The translations under genes and the position numbers were made by a program. A stretch of 64,000 nt of DNA from Mycobacterium sp. HUMS_12744610. Its GTDB lineage: Bacteria > Actinomycetota > Actinomycetes > Mycobacteriales > Mycobacteriaceae. The notes below the pieces were generated by a model. The model was not told the origin of the DNA, made no database searches, and was given only the letters and a program-made list of their open reading frames with translations. Every line of letters begins with the position of its first letter. The first letter of the stretch is position 1. The stretch spans positions 5,208,001 through 5,272,000 of the forward strand of contig NZ_JBGEDP010000001.1 in assembly GCF_041206865.1 (NCBI RefSeq), given 5' to 3'. Of the stretch, positions 10,545 to 12,074 are shown piece by piece.

Positions 10545-12074
10545 ATGTCCGAGCAACCGACGAGTCCGGGGACGACGCGGACGCCGTTCGATGACGTCCG
10601 GCCCGGCTACGACGTGGTCATCGTCGGTGCCGGTTTCGGCGGCATCGGCGCGGCGATACAGCTCAAACGGCTCGGATACGACAACATCGCGATCCTGGAA
10701 CGCGAGCCCGGCCTTGGGGGCACCTGGTACCTCAACCGGTATCCGGGCCTGGCCGTTGACGTTCCGGGCACCACCTACTCGTACTGGTTCGAGCCCAACC
10801 CGCACTGGTCACGGCTGTTTCCGCCCGGTGCCGAGCTGCGGCAGTACGCCGAAGACGTCGCCGACAAGTACGACGTGCGCCGCCACATCCGGTTCGACAC
10901 GACCGTCGAGAGCGCGCGCTGGGACGAGGACGCTCACGTGTGGCGGGTGGCACTGGCCGGCGGCGACGGCCTGACGACGCGCTTTCTGATCACCGCCACC
11001 GGATTCCTGTCACAGCCGCACACACCGCAGATTCCCGGCATCGAGGGTTTCGGCGGCAAGATCGTCCACACCACGGCGTGGGATCACGACTACGAGTTCG
11101 AGGGGCGGCGCGTCGCGCTCATCGGAACCGGGGCGACCGCGGTGCAGTTGATTCCCCAACTGGCCGCCAAAGCCTCCGACCTCACGGTGTACCAGCGCAC
11201 CGCGATCCATGTGGTGCCCAAGATCGACTTCGCCATCCCGGCCTGGCTGCGTTGGGTGTTCGCCCAGATCCCGCTTGTGCAGCGCGCCCTCAGGCAGGTG
11301 ACCGACACCGTTTTCGACGTGATCCTGGACGGTGCGCTGCACTACCGCGGTTTGCGGCGGCTGAACATCGCCGCGTCGGATCTCTCGAAGATCAACCGCT
11401 TCATCGCGATCCGCGACAAGGAATTGCGCCGCAAGCTGACGCCCGACTACGACTTCGGCTGCAAACGCCCGACCTGGTCGAACAGCTACTATCGCACCTT
11501 CGCCAAGCCCCACGTACATCTGGAGACCAACCGCATCGAGCGGATCGAGCCCGACGGCATCGTCACCGTCGACGGACACAAGACCGTCATCGACACGTTG
11601 GTGCTGGCCACCGGTTTCGACCTCTGGGACGCCAACTTCCCCGCCTTCGAGGTGGTCGGCCGAAAGGAGCGGAACCTCGGGAAATGGTGGCGCGATGCCG
11701 GGTTCCAGTCCTACCAGGGAGTGTCCATACCGTATTTCCCCAACCTGTTGAGCCTGGCCAGCCCGTTCGCGTTTTCCAGCTTGTCGTTCTTCAACACCGT
11801 CGAATATCAAATGCGGCACATGGACCGGCTTTTCGGTGAGCTCCAGCGCCGGGGAGCCACCGAGTTCGAGGTGACCGAGGGGGCGATGGCGCGGTTCATG
11901 GATCGGATGACCGCACGCCTCGACAAGACCGTCTTCCACGCGGGCGACTGCACCACCTCGCGGTCCTATTACTTCGACCCCACCGGCAGGGCGTCATTGC
12001 TGCGGCCCACGTCGGTGCTCAACGCGGTGCGGGAGGCGTCGCGCTTCCCGCTGACCGATTACACGATCAGCTGA
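10545..12074 (+). CDS. Type I Baeyer–Villiger monooxygenase in the mycolate cluster
   Basis: A 509-residue FAD/NADPH flavoprotein monooxygenase. The FAD Rossmann motif is VIVGAGFGGIG at residues 25–35, the GGTWYLNRYPG block is at 58–68, and the second (NADPH) Rossmann is LIGTGATAVQ near 192. The type I BVMO fingerprint FxGxxxHxxxW(P/D) is exact at residues 169–180 (FGGKIVHTTAWD, bases 11049–11084). Such enzymes insert oxygen next to a ketone to form an ester. Lying between mmaA1 and the mmaA3-like gene, its likely substrate is a keto-mycolate, giving wax-ester mycolate; this is inference. The first 17 residues, MSEQPTSPGTTRTPFDD, echo the MmaA4 start MVEQPKSPTKTRTRFED, so its 5' end appears borrowed from an mmaA gene. 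The start at 10545 follows CCAGGAGAG. Confidence 0.9.
   Translation: MSEQPTSPGTTRTPFDDVRPGYDVVIVGAGFGGIGAAIQLKRLGYDNIAILEREPGLGGTWYLNRYPGLAVDVPGTTYSYWFEPNPHWSRLFPPGAELRQYAEDVADKYDVRRHIRFDTTVESARWDEDAHVWRVALAGGDGLTTRFLITATGFLSQPHTPQIPGIEGFGGKIVHTTAWDHDYEFEGRRVALIGTGATAVQLIPQLAAKASDLTVYQRTAIHVVPKIDFAIPAWLRWVFAQIPLVQRALRQVTDTVFDVILDGALHYRGLRRLNIAASDLSKINRFIAIRDKELRRKLTPDYDFGCKRPTWSNSYYRTFAKPHVHLETNRIERIEPDGIVTVDGHKTVIDTLVLATGFDLWDANFPAFEVVGRKERNLGKWWRDAGFQSYQGVSIPYFPNLLSLASPFAFSSLSFFNTVEYQMRHMDRLFGELQRRGATEFEVTEGAMARFMDRMTARLDKTVFHAGDCTTSRSYYFDPTGRASLLRPTSVLNAVREASRFPLTDYTIS

What the first reader, a model, noticed from the sequence alone, without database searches (positions are those of the whole stretch)
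10545..12074. A Baeyer–Villiger monooxygenase between mmaA1 and mmaA3-like: candidate keto-mycolate to wax-ester-mycolate enzyme
Seen: the exact type I BVMO fingerprint (FGG…H…WD at 11049–11084) and both Rossmann motifs lie in the oxygenated-mycolate cluster. Known: several mycobacteria (for example the M. avium complex) make wax-ester mycolates thought to arise by Baeyer–Villiger oxidation of keto-mycolates, whose precursor is made by MmaA4. Inference: this gene encodes that step. I do not know of an established gene for it, so this may be an undescribed part of mycolate tailoring.
Basis: partly seen in the sequence, partly recalled or inferred. Interest (0 to 1): 0.85.

Follow-up and report, generated by a model that had tools for sequence, protein, structure and literature searches.

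The report
Baeyer–Villiger enzyme inside mycolate operon
A mycobacterium carries a gene for an oxygen-inserting enzyme inside its cell-wall mycolic-acid gene cluster, and comparison with relatives makes this gene family a good, untested candidate for the missing step that turns keto-mycolates into wax-ester mycolates.

Summary
In detail: an intact 509-aa type I Baeyer–Villiger monooxygenase (BVMO) at 10545–12074 sits between mmaA1 and a methyltransferase gene next to mmaA4, with both Rossmann motifs, the fingerprint, the conserved Arg and a BVMO fold.

The gene belongs to a Mycobacterium-wide orthologue group ("W"). Its likely ancestral place is beside thiC–thiD (20 of 32 chosen contexts). Twenty other thiC loci, from slow growers, lack it; some of those genomes carry W elsewhere: in the mma cluster (window, 7 of 80 titled loci, one partial), at an M. 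avium-complex place, or, in one strain, among other mycolic methyltransferases. Of 76 genomes searched 49 match, including all colombiense, scrofulaceum, interjectum, bohemicum and celatum genomes; gordonae, szulgai, angelicum and five asiaticum-labelled ones do not. This fits wax-ester versus methoxy/keto types, most of them recalled.

Against it: W occurs in M. goodii, setense and brisbanense (recalled epoxy species); engineered keto-making M. smegmatis was reported without wax esters; the window genome lacks a TIGR04465 dehydrogenase over cut-off; two mma-locus copies have lost the fingerprint His; an association with the mmaA3-position gene vanishes under phylogenetic control. No experiment ties W to mycolates.

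The parts
10545..12074 (+). Type I Baeyer-Villiger monooxygenase, 509 aa, orthologue group W
10626..10643 (+). First Rossmann motif GAGFGG (FAD)
11049..11084 (+). BVMO fingerprint FGGKIVHTTAWD (FxGxxxHxxxW[P/D])
11124..11141 (+). Second Rossmann motif GTGATA (NADPH)
11457..11471 (+). GCKRP, whose Arg aligns with the KRP of cyclohexanone monooxygenase
   Evidence: alignment; pattern in 114 of 114 rows; the catalytic role of this Arg is recalled
9429..10289 (+). mmaA1-like mycolic acid methyltransferase (start codon chosen by eye inside ORF 9285-10289)
   Evidence: ORF; NF040660 443.9 bits at G000:C1:5217438-5218286
12190..13083 (+). Mycolic acid methyltransferase in the mmaA3 position next to mmaA4; best PDB matches CmaA1 and MmaA2
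13170..14066 (+). mmaA4 (hma), hydroxymycolate synthase (start codon chosen by eye inside ORF 13023-14066)
   Evidence: (2fk7, 625.8 bits)
8401..9336 (+). Alpha/beta hydrolase flanking the cluster, called LipG here (name recalled)

Best explanation
The gene encodes a type I BVMO (shown by motifs and fold) of an orthologue group W that most likely inserts oxygen next to the keto group of the meromycolate chain of keto-mycolates, giving wax-ester mycolates (inferred). In the window it lies in the cluster whose mmaA4 makes the hydroxymycolate precursor (identity of MmaA4 shown here, its role established). History inferred: W was ancestral in the genus beside thiC-thiD, is missing there in the slow growers examined, and survives or returned elsewhere in some lineages, once in the slot between the mmaA2 and mmaA3 positions. 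Species with keto-mycolates and W would make wax esters; species with keto-mycolates and no W would keep keto-mycolates; species with W and no keto substrate would make neither.
For: BVMO motifs, fold and purifying selection. In the mma cluster in the window and in 7 of 80 titled loci, one partial, on the mma strand and fitting one slot. One more W copy (strain 1465703.0) has three mycolic methyltransferase-family genes within 3 kb, two of them over the family cut-off and one at 320 bits under it; 0.31% of the window genome is within 1.5 kb of an over-cut-off gene of that family. W presence changes 12 times on a 71-row tree, 10 forced by supported branches. W matches in all five M. colombiense genomes, a species reported to have alpha-, keto- and carboxymycolates (PMC4477443, section 3 read); no match in gordonae, szulgai, angelicum and five asiaticum-labelled genomes, recalled as methoxy/keto species. 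M. xenopi, M. phlei and M. aurum, recalled wax-ester makers, have close members by source names.
Against: No enzyme assay or mutant. Most mycolate types used are recalled. W is in M. goodii, setense and brisbanense, recalled as epoxy species. M. smegmatis given hma and rv0132c made keto-mycolates, and the word wax does not occur in that paper's main text (PMC3859598 passages); whether M. smegmatis itself has W was not settled. The window genome and M. helveticum have no TIGR04465 match over cut-off, so their keto supply is unknown. Two mma-locus copies (1100029.7, rhizamassiliense) and the heidelbergense protein have Tyr for the fingerprint His. The M. palustre copy has a stop early in the matched stretch, so that W call may be a broken gene. 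W versus the mmaA3-position gene: 18 of 45 against 25 of 27 (p 6e-6), but about 7 of 10 independent pairs show no difference. In M. avium-complex relatives no mycolate gene was recognised near W. A source calls one W-group protein M. paragordonae; its mycolate type is unknown to me.
Confidence: 0.55

Rival explanations
1. W is a BVMO for another ketone (a fatty ketone, steroid or xenobiotic), and its place in the mma cluster in a few species is incidental.
For: Its likely ancestral place is beside thiC-thiD and a double-TetR gene, not mycolate genes. W is kept in M. goodii, setense and brisbanense, recalled as having no keto-mycolates. Mycobacteria hold many BVMO-like genes: 38 match stretches in the window genome. 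The nearest solved relatives act on small ketones and steroids (names).
Against: Two placements beside mycolic methyltransferases are unlikely by chance (0.31% of the window genome, a figure chosen after the fact). No match in species recalled as methoxy/keto.
Confidence: 0.25
2. W acts on mycolates but not as the native keto-to-ester enzyme, for example on products of epoxide opening.
For: EphD overproduction in M. smegmatis lowers epoxymycolates and yields dicarboxymycolates, taken as the saponified form of wax-ester mycolates (PMC7998700, section 7 read). W occurs in M. goodii and others recalled as epoxy makers.
Against: No BVMO was tied to those products, and the presence of W in M. smegmatis itself was not settled. 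The mma-locus placement beside mmaA4 points to the hydroxy/keto branch.
Confidence: 0.1
3. Wax-ester mycolates are made by a different BVMO (for example an EthA- or MymA-like one), and W merely shares part of the species distribution.
For: EthA and MymA mutants are described as altered in lipid metabolism including mycolic acids (PMC9044951 passages); the window genome holds many BVMO-like genes.
Against: The same passages place EthA in all BVMO-bearing genomes of that set, M. leprae and M. tuberculosis included, which I recall as making no wax-ester mycolates. No other BVMO-like hit appeared in the 80 titled mma loci (W as query, E 1e-30).
Confidence: 0.1

Closest known systems
Cyclohexanone, phenylacetone and steroid monooxygenases (type I BVMOs)
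   Same: Two Rossmann motifs, fingerprint, aligned Arg, fold
   Different: About 25-30% identity; shorter; substrates there are small ketones or steroids
EthA, MymA and the other four M. tuberculosis BVMOs (PMC9044951 passages)
   Same: Mycobacterial type I BVMOs; EthA and MymA mutants linked to lipid and mycolic acid changes
   Different: W was not compared with them directly; the full-length own-genome BVMO matches other than the paralogue are 42% identical or less
Paralogue group P (own copy G000:C1:3887271-3888734)
   Same: 66% identical; the five motif patterns in 6 of 6 rows
   Different: Separate clade; no mma homologue within 1.5 kb of the own copy
F420-dependent hydroxymycolate dehydrogenase Rv0132c (the step before)
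   Same: Acts on oxygenated mycolates made through MmaA4 (PMC3859598 passages)
   Different: Makes the ketone, not the ester; family TIGR04465 (its link to Rv0132c is recalled) is not over cut-off in the window genome

Membership tests
Type I Baeyer-Villiger monooxygenase | Two GxGxxG-type Rossmann motifs | tested here: met
   GAGFGG and GTGATA
Type I Baeyer-Villiger monooxygenase | Fingerprint FxGxxxHxxxW[P/D] between them | tested here: met
   FGGKIVHTTAWD in the window protein. In the comparison set 106 of 114 rows are exact; of the 8 others three have His to Tyr, four end in W-E and one in W-A
Type I Baeyer-Villiger monooxygenase | Conserved Arg aligned with that of CHMO/PAMO | tested here: met
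   KRP aligned; pattern in 114 of 114 rows; catalytic role recalled
Type I Baeyer-Villiger monooxygenase | BVMO fold | tested here: met
Type I Baeyer-Villiger monooxygenase | FAD- and NADPH-dependent ketone oxidation | not testable with these tools
   needs an assay
Keto-mycolate to wax-ester-mycolate enzyme (proposed) | Present in wax-ester makers, absent from keto species without wax esters | tested here: inconclusive
   Fits the species-labelled genomes, but most mycolate types are recalled; also present in species recalled as epoxy makers; the M. palustre copy has an internal stop
Keto-mycolate to wax-ester-mycolate enzyme (proposed) | Linked to oxygenated-mycolate genes | tested here: met
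   Window and 7 of 80 titled mma loci; the other W carriers have it elsewhere
Keto-mycolate to wax-ester-mycolate enzyme (proposed) | Keto supply present in the same genome | tested here: inconclusive
   mmaA4 present; TIGR04465 not over cut-off in G000 and M. helveticum, but also missing in other species recalled as keto makers, such as asiaticum
Keto-mycolate to wax-ester-mycolate enzyme (proposed) | Converts keto-mycolate to the ester | not testable with these tools
   needs an assay or mutant
EthA/MymA group | Direct relationship to EthA, MymA or Rv0565c | not tested
   their sequences were not in hand

The most novel reading that the evidence does not exclude
Group W is the missing wax-ester mycolate synthase of the genus: a gene with a thiC-thiD ancestral address that was lost and re-placed several times, twice beside mycolic-acid methyltransferases, so that its presence or absence, together with the keto supply, sets the keto versus wax-ester mycolate type of a species.
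Probability: 0.5. Interest if true: 0.8.

Novelty: new member of a known kind. Interest (0 to 1): 0.6.

Why it matters
Wax-ester mycolates mark the M. avium complex and some other mycobacteria, and one served as a diagnostic antigen (PMC10967296 passages). I found no gene for their formation in the held library. A single orthologue group with many natural gains and losses, placed in some species inside the oxygenated-mycolate cluster, makes that gap directly testable by one deletion in a harmless wax-ester maker and one enzyme assay.

Tried and rejected
Plasmid records to name the window's species: no close match. The nearest of 70 other rows by the UbiB-like gene is M. helveticum, 94% DNA identity.

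The gene at 12190 as a marker of methoxy species: the table looked strong but independent pairs did not support it, so it is not used as support. That count left out L071, L127, L139 and L140 of the 49 matching genomes.

TIGR04465 dehydrogenase as a required partner: absent in too many species recalled as keto makers to serve.

Mycolate types by species from papers: little found. The EphD paper I wanted is not held.

Strain 1164966.3 (68%) is counted among the 49 but branches outside W. Strain 1081914.2, labelled M. asiaticum, has two hma loci of different kin (L074, L114), so its label or assembly is doubtful. Four of the 80 titled loci (L114, L125, L131, L132) were not searched apart because they share a genome prefix with another locus.

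Protein searches list only the best 120 hits, so species not named there are not shown to lack the gene.

Full report
What is there. The 509-aa reading at 10545–12074 is a type I BVMO by Pfam, by its best solved relatives, by motifs and by fold. The fingerprint alone is expected 1.8e-4 times in such a protein. dN/dS against M. helveticum is about 0.27. It stands on the strand of its neighbours, 255 bases after mmaA1 and 115 bases before the methyltransferase gene at 12190, which is followed by mmaA4.

What group it belongs to. Of 396 Mycobacterium genomes (own included, drawn from a larger group) 308 have a match at E 1e-150, but that count includes paralogues such as the own 66% copy. A tree of 127 rows and one of 69 rows, both quick ones with mixed support, put the window protein with those of M. 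avium-complex relatives, xenopi, celatum, heraklionensis and rapid growers (group W) and the own second copy in a separate clade P.

Where W lies. Contexts were read for 32 W loci chosen from the tree. In 20 of 32 the gene is near ThiC, in 16 of these also with the ThiD family, and in 15 with a 410–500-aa family whose tested member has two TetR domains. In M. avium-complex relatives (colombiense, lepraemurium and others) it lies by a cutinase gene and, in most, acyl-CoA dehydrogenase and P450 genes. In strain 1465703.0 one copy has one mycolic methyltransferase gene about 2.8 kb away on one side and two starting about 0.5 kb away on the other (503, 320 and 472 bits, cut-off 390), with a fourth about 13 kb off. 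In the window it is in the mma cluster. The thiC–thiD neighbours did not travel with 16 moved copies; two gave weak matches to the TetR-type query only.

The mma slot. Of 80 titled hma loci, 7 hold a W gene: M. helveticum, IS-836, IS-1264, MAG CP_BM_RX_R9_38, 1100029.7, M. rhizamassiliense, and a partial one in MAG STB_95. The six complete ones and the window fit one slot between the mmaA2 and mmaA3 positions, with the A2- or A3-type gene missing in some and an extra one in 1100029.7. The window and M. helveticum BVMOs are 77% identical while five flanking proteins are 85–96%, so the gene evolves faster or was exchanged.

Presence by species. The 80 loci lie in 76 genomes, all searched: 26 of 40 and 23 of 36 have a match at E 1e-150, 49 in all. 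One of these (1164966.3) is of unsure group, and the M. palustre copy has a stop early in the matched stretch. With a match: helveticum, bohemicum, nebraskense, lepraemurium, interjectum (2), terramassiliense, vulneris, colombiense (5), scrofulaceum (2), palustre, rhizamassiliense, kyorinense (2), celatum, shimoidei, fragae, heraklionensis, and strains without species names. Without: alsense, paraense, asiaticum-labelled (5), angelicum, tilburgii, gordonae, numidiamassiliense, intermedium, szulgai, and strains without species names. By source names xenopi, heidelbergense and paragordonae and phlei, aurum, monacense, goodii, setense, brisbanense, iranicum and dioxanotrophicus also have close members; these lists are capped at 120.

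Mycolate types. Retrieved: the M. avium complex has wax esters in place of keto (PMC10967296 passages); M. colombiense has alpha, keto and carboxy (PMC4477443, section 3 read); M. smegmatis has alpha, alpha' and epoxy and no keto (PMC3859598 passages); M. marinum has alpha, keto and methoxy (PMC2147073 passages; its genome was not tested by name). Two rapid growers, M. sphagni and M. vinylchloridicum, have alpha, methoxy and keto (PMC8727900 passages); their W status was not tested and could count against the idea. Recalled, from no call: scrofulaceum, xenopi, celatum, phlei and aurum wax-ester; bohemicum, interjectum and palustre probably so; gordonae, szulgai and asiaticum methoxy and keto; goodii, setense and brisbanense epoxy. 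The fit is good for slow growers and imperfect for rapid growers.

Independence. On a UbiB-gene tree of 71 rows (of 76 genomes and the window; the rest lacked a long enough match) W presence changes 12 times, 10 forced by supported branches. Near relatives such as interjectum and paraense (without) are natural tests. The same tree removes the support that a plain table (18 of 45 against 25 of 27) seemed to give for W replacing the mmaA3-position gene.

Results against. Epoxy species with W; keto accumulation without reported wax esters in engineered M. smegmatis (PMC3859598); no TIGR04465 match over cut-off in the window genome or M. helveticum, though IS-836, IS-1264, 1100029.7 and rhizamassiliense have one (22 of 38 over cut-off; that this family is Rv0132c/FGD2 is recalled). 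Eight of 114 rows deviate from the fingerprint: three have Tyr for His, two of them mma-locus copies (1100029.7, rhizamassiliense), and five change the last residue. The Arg is kept in 114 of 114.

For. EphD overproduction in M. smegmatis gives dicarboxymycolates, seen there as saponified wax-ester mycolates (PMC7998700, section 7 read), so some rapid growers may hold a latent activity; that M. smegmatis has W was not shown.

Literature. A survey of BVMOs in 12 actinobacterial genomes says their physiological function is not explored in depth and counts six in M. tuberculosis and one in M. leprae (PMC9044951 passages). A 2025 review lists wax esters as a modification, and the passages seen name no enzyme (PMC12845086).

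Verdict. A known enzyme kind and an uncharacterised orthologue group, with a specific and testable role that the comparative evidence favours but does not prove.

Noticed in passing
L256:9964-11226 (-) and like genes beside thiC-thiD W copies: A 421-aa protein with two TetR_N stretches, divergent from the BVMO; possible regulator of it.
   Followed up: no
G000:C1:3887271-3888734 (L002): A second BVMO of the window genome, 66% identical, in its own clade with M. helveticum, shimoidei and heraklionensis copies.
   Followed up: partly
G000 whole genome: No TIGR04465 match over cut-off although mmaA4 is present; same in M. helveticum.
   Followed up: partly
L058 (G268:C17:102000-120000, strain 1465703.0): A W copy with three mycolic methyltransferase-family genes within 3 kb, outside the main mma cluster; the same genome has a second W copy elsewhere.
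   Followed up: partly
L250 (Mycobacterium sp. MFM001): A W copy close beside another BVMO-like gene (29% identity to the window protein).
   Followed up: no
L153 (M. palustre, G420:C63): The W copy has a stop early in the matched stretch; broken gene or sequence error.
   Followed up: no
L074 and L114 (strain 1081914.2, labelled M. asiaticum): Two hma loci of different kin in one assembly; mixed or mislabelled.
   Followed up: no
G421:C12 (M. tilburgii) and G105:C1: Two thiC matches of equal or near-equal score in one genome.
   Followed up: no
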